Part shown: positions 2,439 to 63,383 of the stretch, piece after piece | Layout: each line of letters begins with the position of its first letter | How positions within the stretch are numbered: the first letter of the stretch is position 1 | Origin: Ianthella basta | Taxonomy: Eukaryota; Porifera; Demospongiae; Verongiida; Ianthellidae | Assembly: GCA_964019415.1 (NCBI GenBank) | Contig: OZ025870.1 | Span: forward strand, 8,337,915 to 8,401,914 | Direction: 5' to 3' | Length of the DNA stretch: 64,000 nucleotides | Program-made: the position numbers and the translations under genes | The notes under the pieces: model-generated | What the model was told of the DNA's origin: nothing | What the model saw: the letters and a program-made list of their open reading frames with translations, nothing else | Database searches by the model: none

Positions 2439-2633
2439 GATGGCTGCAATGCTTTTCATTTGTGTGCTGAGGGTGGCAATGTTGCCATTGCTCAGTTCCT
2501 TGCCCCCACGATGGAGGACCACCTATTTGATGTTGATGATAATGGCTACACTGCCTTGCACTGGGCAACCCAGCTGTCCATGGTGGAGTACTTGGTCAAA
2601 TCTTGTGGACTTGATTTGAAAGCAAAGGACAAG
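2439..2633 (+). CDS. Gene 1 exon A1 (two ankyrin repeats, type I)
   Basis: 65 codons beginning DGCNAFHLCAEGG. It has the type I signature DVDDNGYTALHWATQ and lacks three codons before LSMVEYL compared with exon A5, which shortens the second repeat. Acceptor atctgcag; donor AAG|gttggc. Confidence 0.85.
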
Positions 2634-5600
2634 GTTGGCCTACTGTAAATGTTCCTTGTTCCTTAAATGTTTCCTTGTTGTCTGGTCTATTTTCTACTTC
2701 TCTGGGTCTTCTGTTTTTATATGGACATGGCATAAACAAAGGATGCGATACTTGATTGTTCTTTAGACTTGTTTATGTATTGCAAGTTCATTGTGTGATT
2801 GTATGTCTAAGTATCACATGTAATACTGCAGAGTCTCATAGTTAGTCCGTATTTGTACCAGTTGACAATTTCCGTCAAATTCAAGCAAGCTAAATTTTGA
2901 CCATTCACTGACAGTAACTGTTGTGTTCCTGCTCAGTACATGATTGCCATTGTGTAAATTGCACATGTACCAAGTAGAATACAGTCTTGTGCATTGACAG
3001 ACCTGTGGTTGTAATGTTGCACCTTTATACATGTCACACACTGTAAGGCATCACCTGGTATCATATTCCATTGCTTCCTTTAATGAACAGTGGGGCAGGA
3101 CTCCCCTTTTGAGAGCAGTGCTCACTGGTCATGCTGATGTAGCTCGCTTCTTACTGGAGAGTGGCAGTGATGTCCATGAACAGGCTAATGTGAGTATATG
3201 GCAAAGCAATCTTGTGTCTTCTTGGTTTTGGTCTTTGTAGTTGCTAGATCATGCTTGTATCCTGTGCATCATTGGAAATAGAACACTTTCTGTGTGGACT
3301 TTGAAGCACCTCTGCTGAATCTGCCATTACTACCTCATTCTGCACTCTATGCTACAAGTAGCATGGGATGCAGATACAACCTTCCTATCTCAAATATTCT
3401 CTACCGTGGTATTTTAATGGAATGTCCTGCCCTGCACATGTAGTCAGTTGATAGAGTGTTAGTCTTATTCCTTTTTGTCTCTGCAGAATGGCTGCAATGC
3501 CTTTCACTTGTGTGCTGATGGTGGCAATGTTGCCATTGCTCAGTTCCTAGCCCCCAGGATGGAGGACCACCTATTTGATTTGAGTGATGGTGGCTACACA
3601 GCCTTGCACTGGGCAGCTCAATGTGGTCAACTGTCCATGGTGGAGTACTTGGTGAAATCTTGTGGATTTGATTTGAAAGCAAAGGACAAGGTTGGCCTAC
3701 TTTAAATATTTCCTTGTTGTCTGGTCTGTTTTCTGCCTCTCCTGTTTGCTACCTCTGGGTCTTCTGTTTCTGCATGGACGTGGCATAAACGAAGGATGTG
3801 ATACGTACTTGATTGTGCTTTAGTTTTGTTTATGTATTGCAAGTTCATTGTGTGATTATAGGACTAATTATCACATGTAATACTGCAGAGGCTCATAGTT
3901 AGTTCGTATTTGTGACAACAATGTCTTCCAAGTTCAAGCAAGCTGAATTTTGACCATTCACTGACAGTAACTGTTGTGTTCCTGCTCAGTACATGATTGC
4001 CAATGTGTAAATTGCACATGTACCAAGTAGAATGCAGTCTTGTGTATTGACAGACCAGTGGTTGTAATGTTGCACCTTTATACATGTCACACACTGTAAG
4101 GCATCACCTGGTGTCATAGTCCATTGCTTCCCTCAATGAACAGTGGGGCAGGACTCCCCTTTTGAGGGCAGTGTTCAGTGGTCATGCTGATGTAGCTCGC
4201 TTCTTACTGGAGAGTGGCAGTGATGTCCATGAACAGGACAATGTGAGTATGGTAGAGCAACCTTGTGTCTTCTTAGTTTTGGTCTTTGTAGTTGCTAGAT
4301 CATGGTTGTATCCTGTGCATCATTAATATAGAACTCTTTCTGTGTGGACTTTGAAGTGTATATACCTGTGATGAAATGTGTGTTTGACATGTGTTGTACA
4401 ATATGTATTGACTGGCATTTATATGTCACCAATGTGTTATTTTAACTGTGCAATCTGTAAAGGTAGCCTGGTGACTTGTGCAACTTGCACTTCCTCATTC
4501 ATCCTTCCAGTGACTCTAGCTACGTATATTTCTAGAATTTCCTACAAACCCCTCTGCAGTCTCACATCACTAGCAATTGTCTCAACCAGATTCCTGATTG
4601 CATGTACCTGCTTTATTGAATGATCGTCTAATTTATTTCACACTCCTCTTATTGTCTTGGAACTCTCAGGATTTCAGTCATTTTCCATTCCACTTTCAGC
4701 TCCAGACTCCAAAGTGTTTAAGTTATTACCAAGCATTCATAGACTGCATGCTCTGAAGCACCTCTGCTGAATCTGCCATTATTACCTCATTCTGCACTCT
4801 ATGCTACAAGTAGCATGGGATGCAGATACGGCCTTCCTATCTCAGATGTTCTCTTCCGTGGTAAATTTAATGGAATGTCCTGCCCTGCAAATGTAGTCAG
4901 TTGATAGAGTGTTAGTCTTATACCTTTTTGTCTCTGCAGAATGGCTGCAATGCCTTTCACTTGTGTGCTGATGGTGGCAATGTTCCTATTGCTCAGCTCC
5001 TTGCCCCCATGATGGAGGACCACCTATTTGATTTGAGTGATGGTGGCTACACAGCCTTGCACTGGGCAGCTCAATCTGGTCAACTGTCCATGGTAGAGTT
5101 CTTCGTGAAATCTTGTGGATTTGACTTGAAAGCAAAGGACAAGGTGGCGTACTTTAAATATTTCCTTGTTGTCTGGTCTGTTTTCTACCTCTCCTGTTTG
5201 CTACCTCTCTGGGCCTTCTGTTTCTGCATGGACGTGGCATAAACGAAGGATGTGATACTTGATTGTACTTTAGTTTTGTTTATGTATTGCAAGTTCATTG
5301 TGTGATTGTATGACTAATTATCTCTTGTAATACTGCAGAGTCTCATAGTTAGTTCGTATTTGTGACAACAATGTCTTCCAAGTTCAAACAAGCTGAATTT
5401 TGACCATTCACTGACAGTAACTGTTGTGTTCCTGCTCAGTACATGATTGCCAATGTGTAAATTGCACATGTACCAAGTAGAATGCAGTCTTGTGTATTGA
5501 CAGACCAGTGGTTGTAATGTTGCACCTTTATACATGTCACACACTGTAAGTCATCACCTGGTGTCATAGTCCATTGCTTCCCTCAATGAACAGTGGGGCA

Positions 5601-8600
5601 GGACTCCCCTTTTGAGGGCAGTGTTCAGTGGTCATGCTGATGTAGCTCGCTTCTTACTGGAGAGTGGCAGTGATCTCCATGAACAGGACAATGTGAGTAT
5701 GGTAGAGCAACCTTGTGTCTTCTTAGTTTTGGTCTTTGTAGTTGCTAGATCATGGTTGTATCCTGTGCATCATTAGAAATAGAACTCTTTCTGTGTGGAC
5801 TTTGAAGTGTATATACCTGTGATGAAATGTGTGTTTGACATGTGTTGTACAATATGCATTGACTGGCATTCATATGTCACCAATGTGTTATTTTAACTGT
5901 GCAATCTGTAAAGGTAGCCTGGTGACTTGTGCAACTTGCACTTCCTCATTCATCCTTTCAATGACTCTAGCTACGTATATTTCTAGAATTTCCTAGGAAA
6001 CCCTTTGCAGTCTCACATCACTAGCAATTGTCTCAACCAGATTCCTGATTGCATGTACCTGCTTTATTGAATGATTGTCTAATTTATTTCACACTCGATC
6101 CCCTTATTGTCTTGGCACTCTCAGGATTTCAGTCATTTTCCATTCCACTTTCAGCTCCAGACTCCAAAGTGTTTAAGTTATTACCAAACATTCATAGACT
6201 GCATGCTCTGAAGCACCTCTGCTGAATCTGCCATTGATACCTCATGCTGCACTCTGCTACAAGTAGCATGGGATACTGATACGGCCTTCCTATCTCAAAT
6301 GTTCTCTTCCGTGGTGTATTTAATGGAATGTCCTGCCCTGCACATGTAGTCAGTTGATAGAGTGTTAGTCTTATTCCTTTTTGTCTCTGCAGAATGGCTG
6401 CAATGCCTTTCACTTGTGTGCTGATGGTGGCAATGTTGCCATTGCTCAGTTCCTTGCCCCCATGATGGAGGACCACCTATTTGATTTGAGTGATGGTGGC
6501 TACACAGCCTTGCACTGGGCAGCTCAATCTGGTCAGCTGTCCATGGTGGAGCACTTAGTCAAATCTTGTGGATTTGATTTGAAAGCAAAGGACAAGGTTG
6601 GCCTACTTTGAATGTTTTCTCGTTGTCTGGTCCATTTTCTACCTCTCCGGGCATTCTGTTTCTGCATGGACATGTCATAAACAAAAGATGTGATACTTAA
6701 TTGTTCTTGTAGTTCTATGTATTGCAAGTTCATCGTGTGATCTCAATGGCACATGTAACACTGCAGAAGCTCATAGTTTGTCCATATTTATAACCTGTTA
6801 AGTCCCTCAATTGTCAATAGGTTTCCAAATTATCATTGTGTAAATTATATATGTATGTACCAAGTAGAATGTAGGCTTGTGTATTGCCACACCTGTGGTT
6901 GTAATGTTGCACCTTTATACATGTCACACATTGTAAGGCATCACCTGGTATGATATTTGATTGCTTCCCCTAATCAACAGTGGGGCTATACACCCCTTTT
7001 GAGGGCAGTGGCCGGGGGTCATGCTGATGTTGTTCGATTCTTACTGGATTGTGGCACTGATGTCCTTGGACAGACTAATGTGAGTGCGTCAGAGCAACGC
7101 TGTGTCTTGCATTGCATGTTGTCTGCATTTAGTCCTGTATTGTTGTGATTTCCTTGTGACCTGTGCCCATTGATAATAGAATAATTCTTCTAATGTGGAC
7201 TTGAAAGTGTATCTATATAATGTCTATGTAATGTGTGTATATGTAATGTGACAACTGTATCATGTCACCAAGCAACAGCCCAGGTTAATATATGCACCTC
7301 GGTCCCAAATATTGCCTATTTAACTCTCTACCATACTCTACATAAAATTAATGTAGTGTAGTGATTGTGTGGTGGTATGTACCTTCTTTAGTAATGGAGA
7401 GCACGGGCTGAAGTTCCACTTGAGAGAGGTGGCCATTTGCATTAGACAAGAGCCTAATGCAAATGGCTACCAAGCAACTTGAGGCCTAAGGCGCAAAGCA
7501 CCCGAGGACAAGAGCTGCCTATGCATCATATCGCACACTAAGAAGACTATACCTGTTATATCCCCCTTTACTATGGCTTCCCTGGCCTTTCCGGTGGGTC
7601 ACGGGCTCCTTTAAGCGCCTTCTCTTCTGGTGGGAGATCATAGTTAGCTGCTGTGAGGATGGGCTCCATCAATCTCGGTTGCTTTTGCCTATGTCATGGC
7701 GATTTTATTGACTACTCTTGCCTCGACGTTGACAAGTGCTCTAAATGTCGTAGCAAGTGCAGAAAGGGAGAACAAGCCTCCAAAGGGCAAAAAGAAGCTA
7801 ACTCTTGGTGACATTGGAAGCCGCTTCCAGTTTGTTTCTAAGAAAGATGCTGAAGCATCACAGCAGAGGTATGTTCTGCCAAATACTGAGAAATTGACAA
7901 AGTGAGCCATGAAGGGTTTTGCTGACTGGAGCAGACGCAGCAGCTCATGGGTGAAGTATGCTGCCCAGAAAATTTGCTCAAATGAGTGGACCTTAGCCAA
8001 CTGGCCTAGTGGTTGTCTCTGCTCGCTGTTGAAGTCAGGCAGCCCAGTGGCCATTTCTATTACGTAACTAGCAGAAAGACTTGGCTATGCTACGGAGAGT
8101 CCTCCAGAAATAACAACACAGACAGAGTTTGACCAACTTCTGGAGGACTCTCCATAGGATAGCTAAGACATTTTACTAGTTCTAGTAACTGCTATAACAA
8201 ACTTTTACTAAAGCAATGTTTGTACCTTTTGCTATTTTACTGTATGTGGATTTGTTGTGTATAATGAAATTCATGACATTATGATGGCATTTTTGTGGTT
8301 TGACAAGTGCGGAATATGACCCTTGACCTGTGCTGACCCCTCATATATGCACAGGTCAAGACAGCAGCCCTGGGCTCTTAACGTATAATTGTGAAAATTA
8401 TCAGGGGCCGTTGCCATTGTAATGGGAATATTACAACTATCTGAATATCTGCTGATGTATTAATTCACATGATTACATAATCACCATGCTATCTATTTCT
8501 TGAGTGCTATATAAATTACATCTCACACTTGAATTAGATATATTCATTACACACATTAATGTTAAGTGACATATCCACTGTCATCCTTCACCCTCACTTA

Positions 8601-10554: not shown

Positions 10555-11063
10555 CACTATGTCATGTTGCATGTACTGTATGGTCATTTATTCCCACAGG
10601 GAAATATAGTTTTTTTGGATGATGATGTACTTTATCACATGAATGAATCCAGTCCTGTAATTTATGCATCCTGAAACTGAGTTTTTCTATGCAGTGATGT
10701 ATGATAATGGTTGCTACTGTCTATAATATTAGATATCAGTGTTCATTGTAAATTTATTTCACTAGACAATACATCGATATTGATTTTGGTGCAGTTCTGA
10801 ATGTATAATACATGGCCATGGACTATAATATGATTTCTGGAATGTTTGAGGGAGAAGTCCCCCCTGGGCCAGTAGATTGAACCCTGTGCACCTATATCAG
10901 CACTGGAAGAAAGCTCAACTTTCCTGGTGCTTTTTTGGTGAAGGAAATGTACAGTACATTATAAATATTGCATTTCAGACAAATTTTCTGAGCCAGGAAA
11001 CTTCCACATTTCCTGTACACATTCAATTTCCTGATATAGCACAGGGCACATTATATATGTTAC
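10555..11063. other. Intergenic, nothing recognised
   Basis: AT-rich noncoding DNA downstream of gene 1. No AATAAA that clearly belongs to gene 1 was picked out. Confidence 0.4.
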
Positions 11064-11219
11064 TTAAAGTGGGCTAGGAGTGCTTTACGCGATTTATGGC
11101 TCGAGGTGTGGGGGTCGAGTTACTGATAAAGCACGAGGCGAAGCCGAGTGCTTTATCACGCAACGAGACCCCCACACCGAGTGCCATAAATCGCGTAAAG
11201 CACTCCTAGCCCACTTTAA
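11064..11219. repeat. Foldback element, near-perfect 156-nt hairpin
   Basis: The left arm begins TTAAAGTGGGCTAGGAGTGC and the right arm ends with its complement. Pairing runs for about 37 bp without mismatch, then continues with few interruptions through GGTGTGGGGGTC and TGATAAAGCAC to a small inner loop at GGCGAAGCC. It is GC-rich against AT-rich flanks and has no coding capacity, so it is a foldback MITE. Confidence 0.85.
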
Positions 11220-11223
11220 ATGA

Positions 11224-13072: not shown

Positions 13073-13212
<140 letters not shown>

Positions 13213-36299: not shown

Positions 36300-36703
36300 A
36301 TGGAGGCTACGAAGGCGCACCGAAAGCAAATCCGGATAAGTGCAATTGTTGCCAAATTTCTGCAGAATTGTAGAAAGTTATATTCACAGACGTCGAATAT
36401 TCGCGAGTCAGTGACAAGTCTAAAGCTGAAAACGAGTCTGTGGTAGACGAACTGTTTGAGATCATTTTGTGTAAAGAAGACGATGACTTTGCTACAATTT
36501 GTTCAGCTTTGAGATCTGACGGATACGAAGAATTGGTGGCGAGGCTGGAAGAGACGCAATGGCAAAGAAAAGCCCAAATGTTGTGACAAATGATCAAGAA
36601 TTGTATGTGAAAGTGGAACAAGCTCGGAATGAACCGGCAAAAGCAGAAAGCTCGCCTACAAGCCGTTTCCCAGACGGAATAGAAGAGCATTCTCGGGATA
36701 GAG
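36300..36703 (+). CDS. Gene 2 exon 1: first CARD, frame-inconsistent
   Basis: ATG 36300 opens EATKAHRKQIRISAIVAKFL. The CARD continues one frame over with FTDVEYSRVSDK, VVDELFEIILCKEDDDFATI and SALRSDGYEELVARLEE. The linker is in the third frame (SPNVVTNDQELYVKVEQA to EEHSRDR) and ends at a gtacct donor in phase 1, which fits exon 2. Two single-base offsets (near 36370 and 36560) are needed. They may be sequence errors, a null allele, or a sign that translation really starts in exon 3 (MTDWNKK). Confidence 0.55.
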
Positions 36704-39700: not shown

Positions 39701-40493
39701 ATTGTATCATGTGACTTGAATGTTATGCAATCGAAGAAAGCCCCCCAAGAGGCCATCAAGAGCCTGTTTTTCAATACATACTCTGCTCTCATTCAGATTT
39801 TGAAGACTTGCTATAGTAGCATCAAGAACGTAGCATTAGATGCTGTTGTTATGCAGCAGGTATCTGCCACTGAAGAGAAGGTGAGGCAGGCAAATGATCT
39901 TCGTGATCTGTTTGGAATTTTAGAGATAGGCAAGAAGTGGAATGATCTGCATTTCTTAGATGTCGCCATCACAAACCTCCCACTCCAAGCACATAAGGAG
40001 AGAGAAGCTGCTCAGGTGGTATTAGGGCACTACAAATCTCATCTAAGGGCTTTCATGAAAGCTACCTCCATCAAGGAGGGGAAGAGTGTGCTTAGGTGTC
40101 TTCCACGTAAGCGAGGCAGAGAAGAAAGATTGGCTGTCACTGAGATTACGGTTGACAAAGAAATTGAAGATTATACTTGCAAGGATTGTCTTGATCTGTG
40201 GACATGGTTCCTCATTGAAGCTCTGGAGATACCAGAAGACCGCATTCAGTTTTCTGATGCCAAACGTAGTAACAGCACCACACTTATCTTCAAGTTCCCA
40301 CATACATTTGCTGGAGGGATCGAGGAGAAGCTGTCCAAGCCTGATGTGGTTTGGATCATTGTGCAGTTGGGCATCCTTCGAGTACGTGTTGTAGGGATTT
40401 TCAACAAGGATCTAAGAGAGGTGCAGCCAGTTTTGCTGGCTGTGAATATCAGAGAAGGACTGGAATCTGGAGTAGATTTCATGTCACTAACCA

Positions 40494-40539
<46 letters not shown>

Positions 40540-47913: not shown

Positions 47914-47984
<71 letters not shown>

Positions 47985-53900: not shown

Positions 53901-56900
53901 ATTCTGCACTCTATGCTACAAGTTGCATGGGATGCAGATACAGCCTTCCTATCTCAGATGTTCTCTTCCGTGGTAAATTTAATGGAACGTCCTGCCCTGC
54001 ACATGTAGTCAGTTGATAGAGTATTATTCTTATTCCTATTTGTCTCTGCAGAATGGCTGCAATGCCTTTCACTTTTGTGCTGAGGGAGGCAATGTTGCCA
54101 TTGCTCAGTTCCTTGCTCCCATGATGGTGGACCAGCTATTTGATTTGAGTGATGGTGGCTACACAGCCTTGCACTGGGCAGCTCAATCTGGTCAGCTGTC
54201 CATGGTGGAGCACTTGGTGAAATCTTGTGGATTTGACTTGAAAGCAAAGGACAAGGTTGGCCTAGTTTAGATACTTCCTCGTTCTCTGGTCTGTTTTCTA
54301 CCTCTCCTGTATGCTACCTCTTGTTGCCTACCTTCTGTTTCTGCATGGACGTGGCATTATCGAAAGATGTGATACGTACTTGATTGTGCTTTATTTTTGT
54401 TCATGTATTGCAAGTTCATTGTGTGATTTTAGGACTAATTGTCACATGTAATACTGCAGAGGCTCATAGTTAGTTCGTATTTGTGACAACAATGTCTTTC
54501 AAGTTCAAGCAAGCTGAATTTTGACCATTCACTGACAGTAACTGTTGCATTCCTGCTCAGTACATGATTGCCAATGTGTAAATTGCAAATATACCAAGTA
54601 GAATACAGTCTCGAGTATTGACAGACCTGTGGTTGTAATGTTGCACCTGTATACATGTCACACACTGTAAGGCATCACCTGGTATCATATTCCATTCCTT
54701 CCCTTAATAAACAGTGGGGCAGGACTCCCCTTATGAGAGCAGTGCTCAGGGGTCATGCTGATGTAACTCGCTTCTTACTGGAGAGTGGCAGTGATGTCCA
54801 TGAACAGGACAATGTGAGTATATGGTAAAGCAATCTTGTGTCTTCTTGGTTTTGGTCTTTGTAGTTGCTAGATCATGGTTGTATCCTGTGCATCATTAGA
54901 AATAGAACACTTTCTGTGTGAACTTTGAAGTGTATATACCTGTGACGAAATGTGTTGACACGTGTTGTACAATACGTATTGACTGGCATTTATATGTCAC
55001 CAATGTGTTATTTTAACTGTGCAATCTGTAAAGGTAGCCTGGTGACTTGTGCAACTGGCACTTCCTCGTTCATCCTTCCAGTGACTCTAGCTACGTATAT
55101 TTCTAGAATTTCCTACGAACCTCTCTTCATTCTCACATCACTAGCAATTGTCTCAACCACATTACTGATCTCATCTACCTGCTTTACTGAGTGATAGTCT
55201 AATTTACTTCACACTCCCCTTATTGTCTTAGCACTCTGAGGATTTTAGTCATTTTCCATTCCACTTTCTGCTCCAGACTCCAAAGTGTTTAAGTTATTAC
55301 CAAACATTCATAGACTGCATGCTCTGAAGCACCTCTGCTGAATCTGCTATTAATACCTCATTCTGCACTCTATGCTACAAGTAGCATGGGATGCAGATAC
55401 AGCCTTCCTATCTCACATGTTCTCTTCCGTGGTAAATTTAATGGAACGTCCTGCCCTGCACATGTAGTCAGTTGATAGAGTGTTAGTCTTATTCCTGTCT
55501 GTCTCTGCAGAATGGCTGCAATGCCTTTCACTTGTGTGCTGATGGTGGCAATGTTGCCATTGCTCAGTTCCTTGTCCCCATGATGGAGGACCACCTATTT
55601 GATTTGAGTGATGGTGGCTACACAGCCTTGCACTGGGCAGCTCAATCTGGTCAACTGTCCATGGTAGAGTTCTTGGTCAAATCTTGTGGATTTGACTTGA
55701 AAGCAAAGGATGATAAGGTTGGCCTACTACTATGTTTCCTTGTTGTCTGGTCTGTTTTCTACCTCTCCTCTTTGCTACCTCTCTGGGCCTTCTGTTTCTG
55801 CATGGACGTGGCATAAACGAAGGATGTGATACTTGATTGTGCTTTAGTTTTGTTTATGTATTGCAAGTTCATTGTGTGATTATATGACTAATTATCACAT
55901 GCAGAGGCTCATAGTTAGTTCGTATTTGTGACAACAATGTCTTTCAAGTTCAAGCAAGCTGAATTTTGACCATTCACTGACAGTAACTGTTGCGTTCCTG
56001 CTCAGTACGTGATTGCCAATGTGTAAATTGCACATGAACGAAGTAGAATACAGTCTCGAGTATTGACAGACCTGTGGTTGTAATGTGCACCTCTATACAT
56101 GTCAAACACTGTAAGGCATCACCTGGTATCATATTCCATTGCTTCCCTTAATGAACAGTGGGGAAAGACGCCCCTTTTGAGAGCAGTGCTCATGGGTCAT
56201 GCTGATGTAGCTCGCTTTTTACTGGAGAGTGGCAGTGACGTCCATGAACAGGACAATGTGAGTATATGGTAAAGCAATCTTGTGTCTTCTTGGTTTTGGT
56301 CTTTGTAGTTGCTAGATCATGGTTGTATCCTGTGCATCATTAGAAATAGAACACTTTCTGTGTGGACTTTGAAGTGTATATACCTGTGACGGAATGTGTG
56401 TTTGACACGTGTTGTACAATACGTATTAACTGGCATTTATATGTCACCAATGTGTTATTTTAACTGTGCAATCTGTAAAGGTAACCTGGTGACTTGCGCA
56501 ACTGGCACTTCCTTGTTCATCCTTCCAGTGACTCTAGCTACGTATATTTCTAGAATTTCCTACGAACCCCTGTACATTCTCACATCACTAGCAATTGTCT
56601 CAGCCAGATTACTGATCGCATCTACCTGCTTTATTCAATGATCGTCTAATTTAGTTCACACTCCCCTTATTGTCTTAGCACTCTGAGGATTTCAGTCATT
56701 TTCCATTCCACTTTCTGCTCCAGACTCCAAAGTGTTTAAGTTATTACCAAACATTCATAGACTGCATGCTCTGAAGCACCTCTGTTGAATCTGCCATTAA
56801 TACCTCATTCTGCACTCTATGCTACAAGTAGCATGGGATGCAGATACGGCCTTCCTATCTCAGATGTTCTCTTCCATGGTAAATTTAATGGAACGTCCTG

Positions 56901-59900
56901 CCCTGCACATGTAGTCAGTTGATAGAGTGTCAGTCTTATTCCTTATTGTCTCTGCAGAATGGCTGCAATGCCTTTCACTTGTGTGCTGATGGTGGCAATG
57001 TTGCCATTGCTCAGTTCCTTGCTCCCATGATGGAGGACCACCTATTTGATTTGAGTGATGGTGGCTACACAGCCTTGCACTGGGCAGCTCAATATGGTCA
57101 ACTGTCCATGGTGGAGTTCTTGGTCAAATCTTGTGGATTTGACTTGAAAGCAAAGGACAAGGTTGGCCTACTTTAAATGTTTCCTTGTTGTCTGGTCTGT
57201 TTTCTACCTCTCCTGTTTGCTACCTCTCTGGGCCTTCTGTTTCTGCATGGACGTAGCATAAACGAAGGATGTGATACTTGATTGTGCTTTAGTTTTGTTT
57301 ATGTATTGCAAGTTCATTGTGTGATTATATGACTAATTATCACATGTAATACTGCAGAGGCTCATAGTTAGTTCGTATTTGTGACAACAATGTCTTTCAA
57401 GTTCAAGCAAGCTGAATTTTGACCATTCACTGACAGTAACTGTTGCGTTCCTGCTCAGTACGTGATTGCACAATCAAATACGTAGAGAGTGGCAGTGACG
57501 TCCATGAACAGGACAATGTGAGTATATGGTAAAGCAATCTTGTGTCTTTGGTCTTTGTAGTTGCTAGACCATGCTTGTATCCTGTGCATCATTAGAAATT
57601 GTATATACCTGTGATGAATTGTGTGTTTGACATGTGTTGTACAATACGTATTGACTGGCATTTATATGTCACCAATGTGTTATTTTAACTGTGCAATCTG
57701 TAAAGGTAGCCTGGTGACTTGCGCAACTTACACTTCCTCGTTCATCCTTCCAGTGACTCTAGCTACGTATATTCTAGAATTTCCTACGAACCCCTCTTCA
57801 TTCTCACATCACTAGCAATTGTCTCAGCCAGATTACTGATCGCATCTACCTGCTTTACTGAGTGATAGTCTAATTTACTTCACACTCCCCTTATTATTGT
57901 GGCACTCTGAGGATTTCAGTCATTTTCCATTCCACTTTCTGCTCCAGACTCCAAAGTGTTTAAGTTATTACCAAGCATTCATAGACTGCATGCTCTGAAG
58001 CACCTCTGCTGAATCTGCTATTAATACCTCATTCTGCACTCTATGCTACAAGTAGCATGGGATGCAGATACAGCCTTCCTATCTCAGATGTTCTCTTCCG
58101 TGGTAAATTTATAGGAACGTCCTGCCCTGCACATGTAGTCAGTTGATAGAGTATTAGTCTTATTCCTATTTGTCTCTACAGAATGGCTGCAATGCCTTTC
58201 ACTTGTGTGCTGAGGGAGGCAATGTTGCCATTGCTCAGTTCCTTGCTCCCATGATGGTGGACCAGCTATTTGATTTGAGTGATGCTGGCTACTCAGCCTT
58301 GCACTGGGCAGCTCAATCTGGTCAGCTGTCCATGGTGGAGTACTTGGTGAAATCTTGTGGATTTGACTTGAAAGCAAGGAACAAGGTTGACCTACTTTAG
58401 ATATTTCCTCGTTCTCTGGTCTGTTTTCTACCTCTCCTGTATGCTACCTCTTGTTGCCTACCTTCTGTTTCTGCATGGACGTGGCATTATCGAAAGATGT
58501 GATACGTATTTGATTGTGCTTTAGTTTTGTTCATGTATTGCAAGTTCATTGTGTGATTTTAGGACTAATTGTCACATGTAATACTGCAGAGGCGCATAGT
58601 TAGTTCGTATTTGTGACAACAATGTCTTTCAAGTTCAAGCAAGCTGAATTTTGACCATTCACTGACAGTAACTGTTGCGTTCCTGCTCAGTACATGATTG
58701 CCAATGTGTAAATTGCAAATATACCAAGTAGAATACAGTCTCGAGTATTGACAGACCTGTGGTTGTAATGTTGCACCTGTATACATGTCACACACTGTAA
58801 GGCATCACCTGGTATCATATTCCATTCCTTCCCTTAATAAACAGTGGGGCAGGACTCCCCTTATGAGAGCAGTGCTCAGGGGTCATGCTGATGTAGCTCG
58901 CTTCTTACTGGAGAGTGGCGGTGATGTCCATGAACAGGACAATGTGAGTATATGGTAAAGCAATCTTGTGTCTTCTTGGTTTTGGTCTTTGTAGTTGCTA
59001 GATCATGGTTGTATCCTGTGCATCATTAGAAATAGAACACTTTCTGTGTGAACTTTGAAGTGTATATACCTGTGACGAAATGTGTTGACACGTGTTGTAC
59101 AATACGTATTAACTGGCATTTATATGTCACCAATGTGTTATTTCAGCTGTGCAATCATTAAAGGTAGCCTGGTGACTTGTGCAACTGGCACTTCCTCGTT
59201 CATCCTTCCAATGACTCTAGCTACGTATATTTCTAGAATTTCCTACGAACCCCTGTACATTCTCACATCACTAGCAATTGTCTCAGCCAGATTACTGATC
59301 GCATCTACCTGCTTTATTCAATGATCGTCTAATTTAGTTCACACTCCCCTTATTGTCTTAGCACTCTGAGGATTTTAGTCATTTTCCATTCCACTTTCTG
59401 CTCCAGACTCCAAAGTGTTTAAGTTATTACCAAACATTCATAGACTGCATGCTCTGAAGCACCTCTGCTGAATCTGCTATTAATACCTCATTCTGCACTC
59501 TATGCTACAAGTAGCATGGGATGCAGATACAGCCTTCCTATCTCAGATGTTCTCTTCTGTGGTAATTTTATAAGAACGTACTGCCCTGCACATGTAGTCA
59601 GTTGATAGAGTATTAGTCTTATTCCTTATTGTCTCTGCAGAATGGCTGCAATGCCTTTCACATGTGTGCTAATGGTGGCAATGTTGCCATTGCTCAGTTC
59701 CTTGCCCCCATGATGGAGGACCACCTATTTGATTTGAGTGATGCTGGCTACACAGCCTTGCACTGGGCAGCTCAATCTGGTCAACTGTCCATGGTAGAGT
59801 ACTTGGTGAAATCTTGTGGATTTGACTTGAAAGCAAAGGACAAGGTTGGCCTACTTTAAATATTTCCTTGTTGTCTGATCTGTTTTCTACCTCTCCTGTT

Positions 59901-62900
59901 TGCTACCTCTGGGTCTTCTGTTTCTGCATGGACGTGGCATAAACAAAAGGATCTGATGCGTACTTGATTGTGCTTTAGTTTTGTTTATGTATTGCAAGTT
60001 CATTGTGTGATTATATGACTAATTATCACATGTAATACTGCAGAGGTGAATAGCTAGTTCGTATTTGTGACAACAATGTCTTTCAAGTTCAAGCAAGCTG
60101 AATTTTGACCATTCACTGACAGTAACTGTTGCATTCCTGCTCAGTACGTGATTGCCATTGTGTAAATTGCACATGTACCAAGTAGAATACAATCTCGTGT
60201 ATTGACAGACCTGTGGTTGTAATGTTGCACCTGTATACATGTCACACACTGTAAGGCATCACCTGGTGTCATATTCCATTGGTTCCCTTAATGAACAGTG
60301 GGGAAAGACGCCCCTTTTGATAGCAGTGCTCAGTGGTCATGCTGATGTAGCTCGCTTCTTACTGGAGAGTGGCAGTGATGTCCATGAACAGGACAATGTG
60401 AGTATATGGTAAAGCAATCTTGTGTCTTCTTGGATTTGGTCTTTGTAGTTGCTAGATCATGGTTGTATCCTGTGCATCATTAGAAATAGAACACTTTCTG
60501 TGTGAACTTTGAAGTGTATATTCCTGTGATGAACTGTGTGTTTGACATGTGTTGTATAATATGTATTGACTGGCATTTATATGTCACCAATGTGTTATTT
60601 TAACCGTGCAATCTGTAAAGGTAGCCTGGTGACTTGTGCAATTGGCACTTCCTCGTTCACCCTTCCAGTGACTCTAGCTACGTATATTTCTAGAATTTCC
60701 TAGGAACCCCTCTTCATTCTCACATCACTAGCAATTGTCTCAACCAGATTACTGATTGTATTTACCTGCTTTATTGAATGATCGTCTAATTTAGTTCACA
60801 CTCCCCTTATTATCTTGGCACTCTGAGGATTTCAGTCATTTTCCATTCCACTTTCAGCTCCAGACTCCAAAGTGTTTAAGTTATTACCAAGAATTCATAG
60901 ACTGCATGCTCTGAAGCACCTCTGTTGAATCTGCCATTAATACCTCATTCTGCACTCTATGCTACAAGTAGCATGGGATGCAGATACGGCCTTCCTATCT
61001 CAGATGTTCTATTCCGTGGTAATTTTAATGGAACGTGCTACCCTGCACATGTAGTCAGTTAATAGAGTGTTAGTCTTATTCCTTATTGTCTCTGCAGAAT
61101 GGCTGCAATGCCTTTCACATGTGTGCTGATGGTGGCAATGTTGCCATTGCTCAGTTCCTTGCCCCCATGATGGAGGACCACTTATTTGATTTGAGTGATG
61201 GTGGCTACACAGCCTTGCACTGGGCAGCTCAATCTGGTCAGCTGTCCATGGTGGAGCACTTGGTGAAATCTTGTGGATTTGACTTGAAAGCAAAGGACAA
61301 GGTTGGCCTACTTTAGATATTTCCTCGTTCTCTGGTCTGTTTTCTACCTCTCCTGTATGCTACCTCTCCGGACCTTCTGTTTCTGCATGGACGTGGCATA
61401 AACGAAAGATGTGATACGTACTTGATTGTGCTTTAGTTTTGTTTATGTATTGCAAGTTCATTGTGTGGTTTTAGGACTAATTATCACATGTAATACTGCA
61501 GAGGCTCATGGTTAGTTCGTATTTGTGACAACAATGTCTTTCAAGTTCAAGCAAGCTGAATTTTGACCATTCACTGACAGTAACTGTTGCGTTCCTGCTC
61601 AGTACGTGATTGCCAATGTGTAAATTGTACATGTACCAAGTAGAACACAGTCTCGAGTATTGACAGACCTGTGGTGGACCTGTGAACTGTGTGTGTGACG
61701 TCATGAGATAAATAATGTATTAACCAATGCATGCATTCATCTTACTCAATGTGTTATGTTGAATTGTTGCCATGCAAGCTGTAATGAACAGCAGTTTGTG
61801 GAGCTGTGTATGTGGTAATTCACTGTGTAAGACTGCACTCACAAGATCACTTCCAACTAACCCCACAGTGCATGATATAATTACCACTTGACCAGCAGCA
61901 TGGCAAGTTTTGAGGCTGAAATTATGTCATAAGTACAGTCTGTACAGTAATTATGTACAGTATACAGTGTTTTGATCAAAGTAGTGGAAAGAATATCACT
62001 TACTGTTCTGCAGCTGACCCTTTTAGAATCACTTGCAGTGGCTAGTCTCTGTAAGTTGTAGGATCAAACATTCTTAGGAACCGATTTCATGACTACCAAC
62101 ACTTCCACTGCCCATACCAATGACAGATGCAGTGCTTTTTTACTAGCACAATAGTAGTTTCTTATGACAGTGCTAGGGAAATTGATACTGTGAACTGACT
62201 AATGTAAAGTTCCTTTGCCTTTGTTGTGCTCCCCCTGCCCCGTAACTGATTTAGTGATATTGAGTCCCTTATCATGTAATCTCACAAAGTACTTACTACT
62301 TCCAATTTACTGCACTGAGTTAATTTGAAGGCGAAATGTCATGCCCTGCATGCATAGACAGTTGATGTTGTGCTGTGCCCTTATTCCTTGCTGTCTCTAC
62401 AGAATGGCTGCAATGCCTTTCACTTGTGTGCTAAGGGTGGCAATGTTGTCATTGCTCAGTTCCTTGCCCCTATGATGGAGGATCATCTATTTGATGTGGA
62501 TGATGATGGCTACACTGCCTTACACTGGGCAACCCAAAAAGATCAGCTGTCCATTGTGGACTACTTAGTCAAATCTTGTGTATTTGACTTGAAAGCAAAG
62601 GACAAGGTTGGCCTACTTTTACATGTTTGGTGGTTGTCTGGTCCATTTTTTAACTCTCTGAGTTTTCTGATTCTGCATGAACGTGGCATGCATGAATGAT
62701 ATGATGCTTGATTTGTGTTAGTCTTGTACCCGTGTGTGCGTGTATGTTTGTGTGTGTGTGTGTGTATGTTTGTGAGTGTGTGTGTGTGGAGTGTGTTATT
62801 TGTTTACAATATCGATGATATACTGCTGCGTTGGTAGACGTAGCTGAATAGATTGAATTCTCTTCTATTCTATCAAAGTGCCGGCGCAACCTAGGATGGC

Positions 62901-63383
62901 ATTGAATAGACTGTCCATCTCATTCTCACTGACGTGTCTATATATAAGCATTTCTTCATGGATCATATGTATCTATTAACACCTTCTGCAGTACATGGCC
63001 ATGTTGTATATAACAGGATTCAAGGATCAGTCCACTGAGTGTATACATATGTGTAGTTCTCTATTCCTGTTTTAGCACATGTGCGTACATACCAAGTAGC
63101 ATTCAGACTTGTGCATTTAATAAACCTGGGGTTTAGGTAATCTTATTACACATGGGAAAGCCACTAGCCACGGGCTACTCTGAGAATTGTCTCTTGTCTG
63201 TTGTCTATTGTTGAACGTTTGCACATGTCACACAATGTCAGGCATCACCTAGTGTCATATTTCATTGCTTCCCTTACTGAACAGTGGGGCTACACTCCCC
63301 TTTTGAGAGCAGTGCTCAGGGGTCATGCTGATGTAGCTCGCTTCTTACTGGAGAGTGGCAGTGATGTCCATGAACAGACCAAT
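36300..63383 (+). CDS. Gene 2: CARD-CARD-unknown domain-ankyrin array (25 exons seen)
   Basis: Exons: 36300-36703, 36784-36861, 38839-39204, 39630-40495, 40701-40826, 41059-41175 and 42195-42296, then array exons A5-A14 with B5-B9, B11, B12 and B14 (49678-63383). The first junctions are phase 1, those after 40495 all phase 0. The gene continues past the right edge. Architecture: CARD (exon 1), linker, second CARD (exon 3), ~330 unrecognised residues (exons 4-5) and at least 30 ankyrin repeats. CARDs recruit caspases or adaptors by homotypic contact and ankyrin arrays bind ligands, so a cytoplasmic sensor or scaffold is plausible. No NACHT NTPase is present, unlike NLRs. Confidence 0.75.
36784..36861 (+). 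CDS. Gene 2 exon 2: linker
   Basis: 78 bp, phase 1 in and out, TLGLSLHISSDAKEKGGLPQ then TVVTS. The intron before it is only 80 bp. Acceptor gcctag; donor cag|gtgagt. Confidence 0.5.
36862..38838 (+). other. Gene 2 intron 2
   Basis: Noncoding; no mobile element recognised. A short direct repeat (tccatggttgactggtac / tctatggttggctggtac) lies at 37064-37147. Confidence 0.5.
38839..39204 (+). CDS. Gene 2 exon 3: second CARD
   Basis: 366 bp, phase 1 in and out. After GLALMTDWNKK comes a six-helix CARD pattern: ALEAMRANLKINVKMTQLAD, MNRAEALHARDMIGDAEKMG and VIEVLLGKEDEAFYTFCSML. The KEDEAFYTFCSMLRRSNYE stretch corresponds to CARD helices 4-5 (RKGPEAFEAFCEALR in known CARDs) and matches KEDDDFATICSALRSDGYE of exon 1. 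A serine/lysine-rich linker follows. Confidence 0.75.
39630..40495 (+). CDS. Gene 2 exon 4: unrecognised domain
   Basis: 866 bp (288 codons plus 2 nt), no stop. The first part is helical (LFFNTYSALIQILKTCYSSI, LRDLFGILEIGKKWNDLHFL, VLGHYKSHLRAFMKATSI). The second looks alpha/beta: AVTEITVDKEIEDYTCKDCL, STTLIFKFPHTFAGGIEEKL, PDVVWIIVQLGILRVRVVGI. There is no Walker A or NACHT signature. I do not recognise it; it may be a sponge-specific domain lying between CARD and ankyrin parts. The donor lies at the first GT of a (GT)n tract. Confidence 0.75.
40496..40538 (+). repeat. (GT)n microsatellite on the exon 4 splice donor
   Basis: The exon ends ACCAAG and the intron starts directly with about 21 GT units. 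The 5' splice site is therefore the first unit of a microsatellite. Confidence 0.9.
40701..40826 (+). CDS. Gene 2 exon 5: end of unrecognised domain
   Basis: 42 codons, phase 0 at both ends: EWSPLMCSLVDQVLKPKQVH to LVSAPVQE. Acceptor ttttttgacacag; donor GAA|gtgagg. Confidence 0.7.
41059..41175 (+). CDS. Gene 2 exon 6: first ankyrin repeat
   Basis: 39 codons, phase 0: ATGSSTP then VKDLLHAAEEGRLNDVQYLL and DGGRCKVDDEDE. KDLLHAAEEGRL is the typical N-terminal capping repeat. Donor GAG|gtatgt. Confidence 0.8.
41490..42180 (-). mobile_element. Degenerate LINE fossil
   Basis: Pyrimidine-rich plus-strand text (cattccttcatcc, catcgcctgcagatacttga) parallels the 3' half of the LINE at 23.6-24.0 kb. 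No open frame survives. A TTTAGTACT tandem stretch (41625-41690) is included. Confidence 0.5.
42195..42296 (+). CDS. Gene 2 exon 7: second ankyrin repeat
   Basis: 34 codons, phase 0: KGWTATLKAAYKGHLTVLET then LVKQYGGNVLRRMK. Joining to exon A5 gives RRMK-DGCNAFHLC in frame across a 7.4-kb intron. Confidence 0.8.
42738..42907 (+). repeat. 28-bp minisatellite, six copies
   Basis: The unit CCTCCTCTTGGTCTCTTCCC plus TTCATCGT repeats about six times. The inner copies are nearly identical, the outer ones decayed. It lies in gene 2 intron 7. Confidence 0.85.
43281..45600 (-). mobile_element. LINE fossil, interrupted by a TTAA element
   Basis: 43281-43540 matches the 23.8-24.0 kb LINE region and the small intronic LINE block of the array (caggcacctctgctgcatct). 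45051-45600 matches the 24.24-24.48 kb region (ccacaaatg.ca, ctcaat.att, catcactttg). The two halves are collinear and separated only by the inserted element at 43545-45048. Confidence 0.55.
43545..45048. mobile_element. TTAA-target DNA transposon, ~1.5 kb
   Basis: The left end AGTGCCACTGACATGCAAAA and the right end TTTTGCATTTTACGTGGCACT form imperfect TIRs, flanked on both sides by TTAA (43541-43544, 45049-45052). TTAA targets are used by piggyBac and Kolobok families. The interior has one 64-codon frame (44017-44208) without a recognised transposase motif, so it is non-autonomous or decayed. Confidence 0.75.
45950..47775 (+). mobile_element. Second LINE fossil, heavily decayed
   Basis: Plus-strand pieces: REEVKRAVWKICNGKAAEQD and VPQEWKDATLIPVHKKW (RT N-terminal part), YTDDTVPIAEF (catalytic box YTDD), MRISVEKTKILAVEQK and LLYGAETWPVTQKDIQRLT (post-RT region). 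Many stops and shifts are present. It ends in a purine-rich tail (gaggaggaggaagag) that passes into a (GT)n tract. Confidence 0.8.
47800..48058 (+). repeat. Compound (GT)n microsatellite
   Basis: GT-rich tract with the interspersed higher-order motif TGTGTGCGAGCACG(TG)n occurring three times. It directly follows the LINE tail. Confidence 0.95.
48151..48246. repeat. Copy of the repeat at 169-267
   Basis: Nearly identical to the left-edge copy, with CGCCCTCGTGG as a landmark. It marks the common flank of the two ankyrin arrays. Confidence 0.7.
49678..49881 (+). CDS. Gene 2 exon A5 (two ankyrin repeats, type I)
   Basis: 68 codons, DGCNAFHLCAAGG to DLKAKDK, with the type I signature DVDDNGYTALHWATQ and QSQLSMVEYL. 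It is the intact counterpart of exon A1. Confidence 0.85.
50333..50434 (+). CDS. Gene 2 exon B5 (one ankyrin repeat)
   Basis: 34 codons. It starts SGKTPLLIAVLSGHADVARF (S instead of the W in other copies) and has an extra cysteine codon, HEQCDN, before the donor. Confidence 0.85.
50751..50995 (-). mobile_element. Intronic LINE fossil (unit 5)
   Basis: Has a short insertion, cactttattcc, where other copies read cattttcc. Confidence 0.6.
51139..51345 (+). CDS. Gene 2 exon A6 (two ankyrin repeats, type II)
   Basis: 69 codons. It has VPMMEDHLF and WAAKSGQ, and an added aspartate, KAKDDK, at the 3' end. The same extra codon occurs only in A9. Confidence 0.85.
51795..51893 (+). CDS. Gene 2 exon B6 (one ankyrin repeat)
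   Basis: 33 codons, WGKTPLLIAVLRGHADVARF to HEQVN. K-T-P-L-L-I is shared with B5 and B12. Confidence 0.85.
52210..52451 (-). mobile_element. Intronic LINE fossil (unit 6)
   Basis: Like unit 5 but without its insertion. It reads ttctgcagtc where others have ttctgcactc. Confidence 0.6.
52595..52798 (+). CDS. Gene 2 exon A7 (two ankyrin repeats, type II, VDQ variant)
   Basis: 68 codons with APLMVDQLF in place of APMMEDHLF, and VEHLVKSC. The following intron has the tggcattatcgaaag variant shared with A8 and A11. Confidence 0.85.
53258..53356 (+). CDS. Gene 2 exon B7 (one ankyrin repeat)
   Basis: 33 codons, WGRTPLMRAVLRGHADVAGF, with SGGDVHEQDN. The acceptor is aataaacag rather than aatgaacag, as in B8 and B11. 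Confidence 0.85.
53669..53908 (-). mobile_element. Intronic LINE fossil (unit 7)
   Basis: A small deletion makes ggcactgcgg from ggcactctgagg. Confidence 0.6.
54052..54255 (+). CDS. Gene 2 exon A8 (two ankyrin repeats, type II, VDQ variant)
   Basis: 68 codons, NGCNAFHFCAEGG (F for L), APMMVDQLF, VEHLVKSC. It is nearly identical to A7 including introns. Confidence 0.85.
54715..54813 (+). CDS. Gene 2 exon B8 (one ankyrin repeat)
   Basis: 33 codons, WGRTPLMRAVLRGHADVTRF to HEQDN. A/T change at ADVTRF. Confidence 0.85.
55126..55367 (-). mobile_element. Intronic LINE fossil (unit 8)
   Basis: Reads gattttagtcatt like unit 11, against gatttcagtcatt elsewhere. Confidence 0.6.
55511..55717 (+). CDS. 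Gene 2 exon A9 (two ankyrin repeats, type II)
   Basis: 69 codons with VPMMEDHLF and the KAKDDK insertion, a near copy of A6. Confidence 0.85.
56159..56257 (+). CDS. Gene 2 exon B9 (one ankyrin repeat)
   Basis: 33 codons, WGKTPLLRAVLMGHADVARF to HEQDN. Confidence 0.85.
56571..56814 (-). mobile_element. Intronic LINE fossil (unit 9)
   Basis: Shares the ctttattcaatgatcgtc variant with unit 11. Confidence 0.6.
56958..57161 (+). CDS. Gene 2 exon A10 (two ankyrin repeats, type II)
   Basis: 68 codons with AAQYGQ and VEFLVKSC. The B exon that should follow is truncated. Confidence 0.85.
57486..57517 (+). pseudogene. Remnant of exon B10, 5' part and acceptor deleted
   Basis: Only the last ~10 codons (SGSDVHEQDN) and the gtgagt donor survive. 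A ~230-bp deletion removed the acceptor and two thirds of the exon. Splicing A10 directly to A11 stays in frame and costs one ankyrin repeat. Confidence 0.85.
57796..58038 (-). mobile_element. Intronic LINE fossil (unit 10)
   Basis: Reads ttattattgtggcac, a local variant. Confidence 0.6.
58182..58385 (+). CDS. Gene 2 exon A11 (two ankyrin repeats, type II, VDQ variant)
   Basis: 68 codons with APMMVDQLF, SDAGYSALHW and KARNK at the end. The acceptor tctctacag is weaker than the tctctgcag of other copies. Confidence 0.85.
58845..58943 (+). CDS. Gene 2 exon B11 (one ankyrin repeat)
   Basis: 33 codons, WGRTPLMRAVLRGHADVARF, SGGDVHEQDN, close to B7. Confidence 0.85.
59254..59497 (-). mobile_element. 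Intronic LINE fossil (unit 11)
   Basis: A mosaic of unit 9 (gtacattctc, ttattcaatgatcg) and unit 8 (gattttagtc) variants, as expected from recombination between units. Confidence 0.6.
59641..59844 (+). CDS. Gene 2 exon A12 (two ankyrin repeats, type II)
   Basis: 68 codons, NGCNAFHMCANGG, APMMEDHLF, SDAGYTALHW. Confidence 0.85.
60299..60397 (+). CDS. Gene 2 exon B12 (one ankyrin repeat)
   Basis: 33 codons, WGKTPLLIAVLSGHADVARF to HEQDN. Confidence 0.85.
60711..60954 (-). mobile_element. Intronic LINE fossil (unit 12)
   Basis: Last copy of the block. It is absent from the introns of units 13 and 14. Confidence 0.6.
61098..61301 (+). CDS. Gene 2 exon A13 (two ankyrin repeats, type II)
   Basis: 68 codons, NGCNAFHMCADGG, APMMEDHLF, VEHLVKSC. 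No exon B follows: the unit sequence breaks at about 61670 and joins sequence that in the next unit lies after exon B14. Confidence 0.85.
62403..62606 (+). CDS. Gene 2 exon A14 (two ankyrin repeats, type I)
   Basis: 68 codons, AKGGNVVIAQFLAP, DVDDDGYTALHWATQ, KDQLSIVDYLVKSC. It is the most divergent A exon and opens a new type I block. Acceptor tctctacag. Confidence 0.85.
63295..63383 (+). CDS. Gene 2 exon B14 (one ankyrin repeat)
   Basis: 33 codons, WGYTPLLRAVLRGHADVARF to HEQTN. WGY and QTN are shared with the edge exon B4 of gene 1. It is the last exon in the window and its donor gtgagt predicts further exons to the right. Confidence 0.85.

What the first reader, a model, noticed from the sequence alone, without database searches (positions are those of the whole stretch)
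2439..63383. Two-exon ankyrin module amplified in two genes
Seen: a ~1.456-kb unit with exon A (two repeats) and exon B (one repeat) occurs 4 times in gene 1 and 10 times in gene 2, with introns as similar as exons. Known: ankyrin solenoids often grow by tandem duplication. Inference: unequal crossing-over and conversion keep the units alike, so repeat number probably varies among individuals. This is a candidate rapidly evolving recognition array.
Basis: partly seen in the sequence, partly recalled or inferred. Interest (0 to 1): 0.85.

Follow-up and report, generated by a model that had tools for sequence, protein, structure and literature searches.

The report
Growing ankyrin-module arrays in CARD genes
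Two neighbouring animal genes carry tandem copies of a two-exon ankyrin block whose inner copies multiply and mix while end copies tend to stay put, in a large family that looks like intracellular alarm proteins, so they may be fast-changing sensors of foreign molecules.

Summary
The window holds 14 intact exon-A copies (two ankyrin repeats, usually 68 aa) and 12 intact exon-B copies (one repeat, usually 33 aa), all in phase 0/0, open and flanked by AG/GT. In gene 2, exon B is lost after two of the ten A exons in the window, and the gene runs past the window (14 A, 11 B seen). Introns are about as similar as exons.

The two genes are paralogues in a ~1-Mb cluster. Upstream of gene 2's array are a death-fold domain closest to the APAF1 CARD (weak scores), an uncharacterised α/β domain and two more ankyrin exons.

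First units, and several last units, group by position across genes. Inner units more often resemble units of their own array, are mosaic, and differ in number between genes. Sister arrays have other periods and a 7346-bp duplication with 8980 bp free of differences.

Amino-acid variation concentrates on the ankyrin ligand surface. Best reading: arrays of a CARD–ankyrin sensor-like family growing by internal unequal exchange. Recognition is inferred; positive selection is not proven; variation between individuals was not testable. Closest known: sponge Death–TRADD-N–ankyrin expansions and fungal ankyrin NLRs.

The parts
2439..2633 (+). gene 1 exon A1 (195 bp; first-unit type)
3091..3189 (+). 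gene 1 exon B1
3487..3690 (+). gene 1 exon A2
4144..4242 (+). gene 1 exon B2
4940..5143 (+). gene 1 exon A3
5594..5692 (+). gene 1 exon B3
6393..6596 (+). gene 1 exon A4 (last-unit type)
6981..7079 (+). gene 1 exon B4 (last-unit type)
36380..36705 (+). second CARD-like stretch upstream of gene 2; lies in two reading frames in this copy, so its status is unclear
38850..39137 (+). gene 2 N-terminal CARD-like death-fold domain
39630..40495 (+). gene 2 middle exon (about 290 aa; start judged by eye from an AG); its last 126 aa model as a beta-alpha-beta-beta-alpha-beta domain, TRADD-N-like but unproven; the donor GT starts a (GT)n run
41059..41175 (+). gene 2 ankyrin exon 3 (39 aa, phase 0/0)
42195..42296 (+). 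gene 2 ankyrin exon 4 (34 aa, phase 0/0)
49678..49881 (+). gene 2 exon A1 (first-unit type)
50333..50434 (+). gene 2 exon B1 (102 bp)
51139..51345 (+). gene 2 exon A2 (207 bp)
51795..51893 (+). gene 2 exon B2
52595..52798 (+). gene 2 exon A3
53258..53356 (+). gene 2 exon B3
54052..54255 (+). gene 2 exon A4
54715..54813 (+). gene 2 exon B4
55511..55717 (+). gene 2 exon A5 (207 bp)
56159..56257 (+). gene 2 exon B5
56958..57161 (+). gene 2 exon A6 (its B is deleted)
57483..57539 (+). 3' fragment of an exon B with its donor, acceptor lost
58182..58385 (+). gene 2 exon A7
58845..58943 (+). gene 2 exon B7
59641..59844 (+). gene 2 exon A8
60299..60397 (+). gene 2 exon B8
61098..61301 (+). gene 2 exon A9 (no B follows)
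62403..62606 (+). gene 2 exon A10 (diverged type, nearest to the 8.79-Mb array in the tree)
63285..63383 (+). gene 2 exon B10; gene continues beyond the window

Best explanation
The window holds parts of two paralogous genes of one expanded animal family whose full form, seen in gene 2, is: CARD-like death-fold domain, middle alpha/beta domain, then an ankyrin solenoid encoded by tandem two-exon modules (A two repeats, B one repeat, all phase 0/0). Shown here: inner modules multiply and recombine, more within than between genes; first modules and several last ones keep their identity across genes; and the reading frame survives any number or order of modules because every module exon is symmetric. 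Also shown: amino-acid differences between modules sit mainly on the ligand-facing positions of the ankyrin fold. Inferred: that these exons are joined in one transcript, that the solenoid is the sensing arm of an intracellular stress or non-self sensor, that the CARD-like domain passes the signal on by CARD-CARD assembly, and that unequal exchange plus loose selection on the surface keeps producing new binding surfaces and lengths. Gene 1 lacks a CARD exon nearby and may be truncated or act without it.
For: Module anatomy and open frames. In the fetched cluster stretches, 84 of 88 full-length A (3 frameshifted, 1 bordering unreadable sequence) and 71 of 71 full-length B are open with AG/GT; 5 A and 3 B hits were partial. 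In nine full units exons carry 2 indels, both 3 bp, in 309 columns; introns 19 indels, 15 not multiples of 3, in 1176. Paralogy of the two genes: 6.2 kb at 94.5% upstream, 2.7 kb at 93.1% downstream. Edge/inner contrast: tree of 64 units, label shuffles, mosaic test, 7346-bp duplication, other periods. Cluster: 148 of 150 listed exon-A matches on one contig (listing capped, 150 of 942 candidates scored). CARD: PDB sequence search, 7 of 8 hits are APAF1 CARD at E 0.26-0.34; six-helix model, pLDDT 60; Foldseek rows 1-3 are APAF1 CARD entries and rows 4-5 chains of a CARD-CARD disk, probability 0.87-0.98; Pfam CARD 0.094 here and 0.024 in a paralogue, below its cut-off. Surface: 8 of the 10 most variable of 101 positions are among the 19 at ankyrin positions 2, 3, 5, 10, 13, 14; mean entropy 1.10 against 0.34, 0 of 20000 draws; for the 16 of these with a background value, 1.23 against 0.35 bits at 18 equally free positions, p 3e-4. 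pN/pS 1.11 against 0.36 (for the set 2, 3, 5, 13, 14, 33). The position set is that randomised in a published ankyrin library (PMC3308923, passages read).
Against: No expression, ligand, interaction or population data. pN/pS at the surface is not significantly above 1 (0.61-1.77), so relaxed constraint would fit. Every CARD score is below formal cut-offs: Foldseek has no match with E at or below 0.001 among 149, and in the Pfam scan of the window's own copy an unrelated model (Mo25, 0.077) ranks just above CARD. No CARD exon was found near gene 1: whose listing is capped at 150, none lies between 8286657 and 8376764 on the contig. One of the nine full-length cluster copies of the domain has a stop, and the second CARD-like stretch is in two frames. 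The middle domain matched no TRADD-N model and TRADD is not among the 50 of 1100 fold matches shown. Two of the ten A exons of gene 2 in the window have lost their B. 6 of 26 inner units are nearest to a unit of another array. Ankyrin surface positions vary in most ankyrin proteins; the matched control lowers that objection but rests on repeats of eight loci of one genome, some overlapping.
Confidence: 0.6

Rival explanations
1. Neutral turnover of a structural ankyrin spacer. Tandem DNA grows and shrinks by unequal exchange, and variation collects at surface positions only because core positions cannot change; no recognition is involved.
For: Ligand-facing positions 5, 10, 13 and 14 are also the freest positions in other ankyrin repeats of this genome; pN/pS at the surface is about 1, not above it; introns turn over with the exons.
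Against: Equally free positions off the ligand face vary much less (0.35 against 1.23 bits); gene 2 carries a death-fold-like domain of a family that fills the listing of 150 matches.
Confidence: 0.25
2. Partly pseudogenised duplicates: the array grows because it is no longer under strong constraint.
For: No CARD exon near gene 1; the upstream CARD-like stretch is in two frames; B exons are lost twice in the window and 3 of 88 A exons in the cluster are frameshifted.
Against: All 26 full-length module exons in the window are open with splice dinucleotides; indels in exons are multiples of 3 only; pN/pS is 0.36 outside the surface.
Confidence: 0.08
3. Assembly artefact: copies were multiplied or collapsed by the assembler.
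For: The duplication in the sister array at 8.70 Mb has 8980 bp without a difference, which alone cannot be told from an assembly error.
Against: The window's own units differ by about 5-7% in introns on average and carry private indels, so accurate long reads would separate them; edge units and deletions are unit-specific.
Confidence: 0.03
4. Cassette array for alternative splicing: symmetric exons are skipped or joined in varied sets to make many isoforms from one gene.
For: All A and B exons and both upstream ankyrin exons are phase 0/0, and A-A as well as A-B-A joins keep the ankyrin register. A donors are weak (GTTGGC in 12 of 14) while B donors are GTGAGT in 12 of 12 (the consensus is recalled).
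Against: Phase symmetry is expected of any exon array that grows by duplication; no RNA evidence was available.
Confidence: 0.1

Closest known systems
Death-like–TRADD-N–ankyrin expansions of the sponge Amphimedon queenslandica (Kaur et al. 2021, PMC8195603; the section on the NCOA6 clade and other passages read)
   Same: N-terminal death-superfamily domain(s), a domain at the junction, and a fast-evolving C-terminus with ankyrin repeats among the commonest parts; very large lineage-specific family
   Different: TRADD-N identity of the middle domain was not established here; the parts read do not describe two-exon modules, fixed edges or unit-level recombination; the organism of the window is not known
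Fungal NLRs with highly conserved ANK, TPR or WD repeats, Podospora anserina (Dyrka et al. 2014, PMC4986451; passages read)
   Same: Nearly identical ankyrin repeats, signs of concerted evolution, differences on the concave ligand face
   Different: There the proteins have a NOD (NACHT/NB-ARC) domain and repeats were sequenced from several isolates; here no NOD domain was found in the exons and ORFs scanned, the unit is a three-repeat, two-exon module with introns, and individuals were not compared
APAF1 CARD (PDB 2p1h, 1cy5 and others)
   Same: Best match of the N-terminal domain by sequence and by predicted fold
   Different: Weak scores; APAF1 senses with WD40 repeats and has NB-ARC (recalled), this gene has ankyrin repeats
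Protein-repeat arrays in general evolving by birth and death or homogenisation (PMC5120217, passages read)
   Same: Propagation of units by duplication, unequal crossing-over and conversion
   Different: That study is of protein repeats in general; 'intron' and 'exon' do not occur in its main text

Membership tests
Ankyrin-repeat proteins | Pfam ankyrin models over their cut-off | tested here: met
   Exon A1 of gene 2: Ank_2 1.4e-12, 48.5 bits (cut-off 27.3); exon B4 of gene 2: Ank 6.1e-9, 36.1 bits (cut-off 21.1) (two exons scanned)
CARD | Pfam CARD over its cut-off | tested here: not met
   13.2 bits (window) and 15.1 bits (a paralogue) against a cut-off of 23.9
CARD | Six-helix death fold, nearest to known CARDs | tested here: inconclusive
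   Six helices, pLDDT 60, no alignment; Foldseek top five are CARD structures (APAF1 or the CARD-CARD disk), E 0.20-0.36, TM 0.48-0.56 by query length; none of 149 matches reaches 0.001
Sponge Death-like–TRADD-N–ankyrin family | 1-3 N-terminal death-superfamily domains | tested here: inconclusive
   One CARD-like domain by methods below cut-off; a second related stretch 2.1-2.5 kb upstream in two frames
Sponge Death-like–TRADD-N–ankyrin family | TRADD-N domain (RRM-like fold, tiny residue plus serine at the beta2-beta3 turn) | tested here: inconclusive
   Model with beta-alpha-beta-beta-alpha-beta order, pLDDT 52, N-S at the beta2-beta3 turn; no PF13820 or PF09034 among Pfam matches of the middle exon; PF13820 found nowhere in the genome but nor in any control; TRADD not in the 50 fold matches shown
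Sponge Death-like–TRADD-N–ankyrin family | C-terminal ankyrin repeats | tested here: met
Sponge Death-like–TRADD-N–ankyrin family | Host is a sponge or other marine invertebrate | not testable with these tools
   Genome unnamed; rRNA and COX1 searches gave no usable answer
Fungal-type NLR with conserved repeats | Central NACHT or NB-ARC domain | tested here: not met
   No such match among the exons and ORFs scanned with Pfam at E up to 1 or 10; exons not recognised could remain
Fungal-type NLR with conserved repeats | High internal repeat conservation with unit exchange | tested here: met
Fungal-type NLR with conserved repeats | Repeat-number polymorphism among individuals | not testable with these tools
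   One assembly only
Fungal-type NLR with conserved repeats | Positive selection on the ligand face | tested here: inconclusive
   Variation enriched there, pN/pS 1.11, interval 0.61-1.77

The most novel reading that the evidence does not exclude
An animal germ line has a receptor system in which the sensing arm is a rewritable string of symmetric exon modules. Each gene of a megabase cluster of CARD–ankyrin genes carries its own number and order of A and B modules, renewed by unequal exchange between fixed ends, so that each individual has a private set of solenoid sensors, perhaps widened further by exon skipping. It would be an animal counterpart of the fungal ankyrin NLRs linked to self/non-self recognition.
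Probability: 0.2. Interest if true: 0.86.

Novelty: new variant of a known kind. Interest (0 to 1): 0.6.

Why it matters
How animals without antibodies diversify intracellular recognition is open. These genes show, in one assembly, the parts such a mechanism needs: stable ends, labile in-frame inner modules, mosaic units, and differences placed on the binding face, next to a death-fold-like domain. Because the modules are about 1.5 kb apart and differ by 5-7% on average, long reads can count and order them per allele, which makes the idea directly testable.

Tried and rejected
An apparent 1747-codon frame with an A exon in the cluster looked like an intronless copy. On fetching, it was an effect of unreadable bases and was dropped.

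A naive finding that introns are less diverged than synonymous sites (pS/intron 1.6 in close pairs) was rejected: those pairs had been chosen by low intron distance. Without that choice the ratio is 0.93 (0.70-1.16) for all pairs and 0.71 (0.44-1.01) for the window pairs. In nine full window units synonymous differences are higher than intron differences (12.0% against 6.1%), so the matter is left open.

A direct pN/pS proof of positive selection failed. TRADD-N membership stayed inconclusive. Naming the organism failed: the rRNA search and the COX1 search gave no usable answer. That it is a sponge is a guess from gene architecture only. The module DNA search did not list gene 2 itself, the gene its query came from, so its listing is incomplete.

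Literature searches listed no paper describing such two-exon ankyrin modules by title or start of abstract: (0 papers). This is not proof of absence, since most subscription journals are not held. Passages of PMC8242945 and PMC9611651 were seen and not used.

Choices made. The surface test was first run with a recalled position set (2, 3, 5, 13, 14, 33: entropy 1.04 against 0.37; matched control 1.31 against 0.42, p 0.001) and then with the published set; both agree. pN/pS used the recalled set. The label shuffle used 26 of 64 units: 3 first units, 5 last or window-last units, one deviating unit and all units of ten other arrays were left out by hand; repeats without the recent duplicates and with all 64 units are. 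Pair statistics used 60 of 64 units. Entropy used 72 distinct 68-aa A and 56 distinct 33-aa B exons, leaving out 3 A and 1 B of other length and identical copies.

The main confidence went from 0.62 to 0.60, that of the neutral rival from 0.24 to 0.25 and the interest from 0.62 to 0.6, because 15 of 22 without duplicates is weaker than 20 of 26.

Full report
Setting. The window is C3:8337915-8401914 of a 209-Mb, 96-contig genome, eukaryotic by its introns.

Observation. A self-comparison shows long off-diagonal matches in 2-7 kb and 49.2-63.5 kb. Aligning the copies fixes the module. Exon A is usually 204 bp, begins mostly after CTGCAG and ends mostly before GTTGGC. Exon B is usually 99 bp, begins after AACAG and ends before GTGAGT. 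Both are phase 0/0, so A-B-A and A-A joins both keep the ankyrin register. 14 of 14 A and 12 of 12 full-length B in the window are open. Two gene-2 units lack B: one keeps a 3' fragment without acceptor, one has none found. Beyond the window gene 2 has 4 more A and 3 more B, one A fragment and a tail exon.

Genes. Upstream of the gene-2 array lie a domain at 38850-39137, a middle exon to 40495 and two ankyrin exons at 41059 and 42195. Gene 1 is a paralogue: matching sequence spans about 20 kb in gene 1 (from 9.0 kb before the window to 10.7 kb) and about 39 kb in gene 2 (39.5-78.2 kb), the difference lying largely in the array and insertions. Its middle exon and first ankyrin exons lie upstream of the window and its tail exon is at 10022-10213. 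No CARD exon was found near gene 1 in the capped listing. The N-terminal domain of gene 2 resembles CARD by three weak but agreeing lines: PDB sequence search (7 of 8 hits APAF1 CARD, E 0.26-0.34), Foldseek on a pLDDT-60 model (first five rows CARD structures of APAF1 or the CARD-CARD disk, none significant by E-value), and Pfam CARD below cut-off. The same domain filled the listing of 150 matches genome-wide (150 of 389 candidates scored), with 9 full-length ones, one holding a stop, between 7.94 and 8.76 Mb of this contig. The end of the middle exon models as a beta-alpha-beta-beta-alpha-beta domain (pLDDT 52). This fits the TRADD-N fold as described by Kaur et al. (PMC8195603, passages), but no profile or fold match confirmed it.

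Cluster. A module DNA search listed 114 matches, 112 on C3, though it left out gene 2 itself. An exon-A protein search listed 150 (the cap), 148 on C3, mainly 7.96-8.97 Mb on one strand plus a group near 7.0 Mb on the other. Among fetched stretches, 88 full-length A were seen: 84 intact, 3 frameshifted, 1 bordering unreadable bases; 71 of 71 full-length B were intact. Arrays have their own periods: 1.45 kb here, 1.575 kb at 8.49 and 8.86 Mb, 2.43 kb at 8.79 Mb with 99.3-99.5% identity in the two longest matches. At 8.70 Mb, 7346 bp holding several modules is duplicated (99.3% over 12.4 kb) with 8980 bp free of any difference. A 19.9-kb stretch, cut by the fetched ends, recurs 319 kb away at 98.6%. 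Module arrays thus expanded repeatedly and recently, unless the identical copies are an assembly error.

How the arrays change. A tree of 64 A-intron-B segments puts the first units of gene 1, gene 2 and the 8.70-Mb array together, and the last units of gene 1 and of the 8.70, 8.49 and 8.86-Mb arrays in one group with a few other units. The true last unit of gene 2, beyond the window, was not in the tree, and the last unit inside the window falls elsewhere. Inner units fall mainly, not always, by array: the nearest neighbour is in the same array for 20 of 26 inner units chosen by hand from five arrays (23% under shuffled labels), 15 of 22 without the recent duplicates (20%), and 28 of 64 over all units (8%), 0 of 2000 shuffles as high each time. 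The six exceptions among the 26 link the 8.49 and 8.86-Mb arrays (4) and gene 2 and the 8.70-Mb array (2). Within units, neighbouring variable sites agree better than shuffled ones (incompatibility 0.241 against 0.335 for nine units, 0.318 against 0.471 for seven gene-2 units; 0 of 1000 as low), the mark of mosaic units. Mean intron divergence among six core gene-2 units is 5.1%, close to the 5.5% of the longest upstream match between the two genes, so array growth and gene duplication are of similar age. Inference: unequal exchange acts on inner units; edge units, with unique flanks, escape.

Selection. In nine full units exons carry two 3-bp indels; introns carry 19 indels, 15 of them not multiples of three. 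Frame is kept. Among distinct A and B sequences of the cluster, 8 of the 10 most variable of 101 positions are among the 19 at ankyrin positions 2, 3, 5, 10, 13, 14, the set randomised on the binding face of a published ankyrin library (PMC3308923, passages). Mean entropy is 1.10 there against 0.34 (0 of 20000 draws). Since these positions are free in most ankyrins, a control used per-position entropy of 209 ankyrin repeats from eight other loci of the same genome, some overlapping: 18 equally free positions off this face average 0.35 against 1.23 bits for 16 on it (p 3e-4; positions are not fully independent). pN/pS is 1.11 (0.61-1.77) on the face, taken as positions 2, 3, 5, 13, 14, 33, and 0.36 (0.26-0.51) elsewhere for 60 units. 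This supports a diversifying or unconstrained binding face in a constrained scaffold; it does not prove positive selection.

Mechanism. Shown: module anatomy, frame symmetry, inner-unit recombination, number differences among paralogues, placement of variation. Inferred: the solenoid binds a target, and the CARD-like domain then recruits partners by CARD-CARD contact. This is the usual logic of such proteins (recalled) and is in line with the model of Kaur et al. for TRADD-N proteins, but nothing here tests it.

Known relatives. Kaur et al. [quoted passage not shown] Dyrka et al. report ankyrin repeats of fungal NLRs with high internal identity, number polymorphism and selected sites on the concave face. 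The present genes work like the second and are built like the first. Membership in either is not shown: TRADD-N is inconclusive and a NOD domain was not found. What I did not see in the parts read is the DNA-level process in an intron-bearing module with stable ends.

Verdict. A real, ordered, recent and recurrent module amplification in a sensor-like family; the recognition role is a good hypothesis, individual variation an untested one.

Noticed in passing
window 793-1929, minus strand: Reverse-transcriptase ORF beside the gene 1 array (Pfam RVT_1 7.3e-6, below cut-off); its C-terminal end looks like the GIY-YIG part of Penelope-like elements (recalled, not tested).
   Followed up: partly
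window 23869-25201, minus strand: Reverse transcriptase (RVT_1 1.1e-36), LINE-like by eye, with a further ORF beside it without Pfam match, between the two genes.
   Followed up: partly
window 63700-63915, repeated beyond the window at 67876-68091: 216-bp direct repeats, 99.5% identical, about 4.2 kb apart: an insertion with terminal repeats inside a gene 2 intron, interrupting the array.
   Followed up: partly
window 40496-40538: The donor GT of the gene 2 middle exon is the start of a perfect (GT)n microsatellite, so length changes there touch a splice site.
   Followed up: no
window 26924-31714: Long plus-strand ORFs between the genes, one of 598 aa with many hydrophobic stretches; no Pfam match over cut-off for the four scanned.
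   Followed up: no
window 42734-42902: 28-bp tandem repeat, six copies, in the long gene 2 intron; also present in the gene 1 counterpart upstream of the window.
   Followed up: no
L001-L008 and listing (contigs C1, C4, C15, C22 and others): Many other ankyrin matches of this genome lie in long open frames (often 800-2500 codons) grouped on a few contigs, unlike the two-exon modules here.
   Followed up: no
75.97, 78.39 and 79.73 kb in window numbering (beyond the window): A segment 3' of gene 2 is present about three times, once in gene 1 near 8.6 kb.
   Followed up: no
L034 (C3:8786000-8793999): A 2.43-kb version of the module with extra intron sequence, repeated at 99.3-99.5% identity: a still younger array.
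   Followed up: partly
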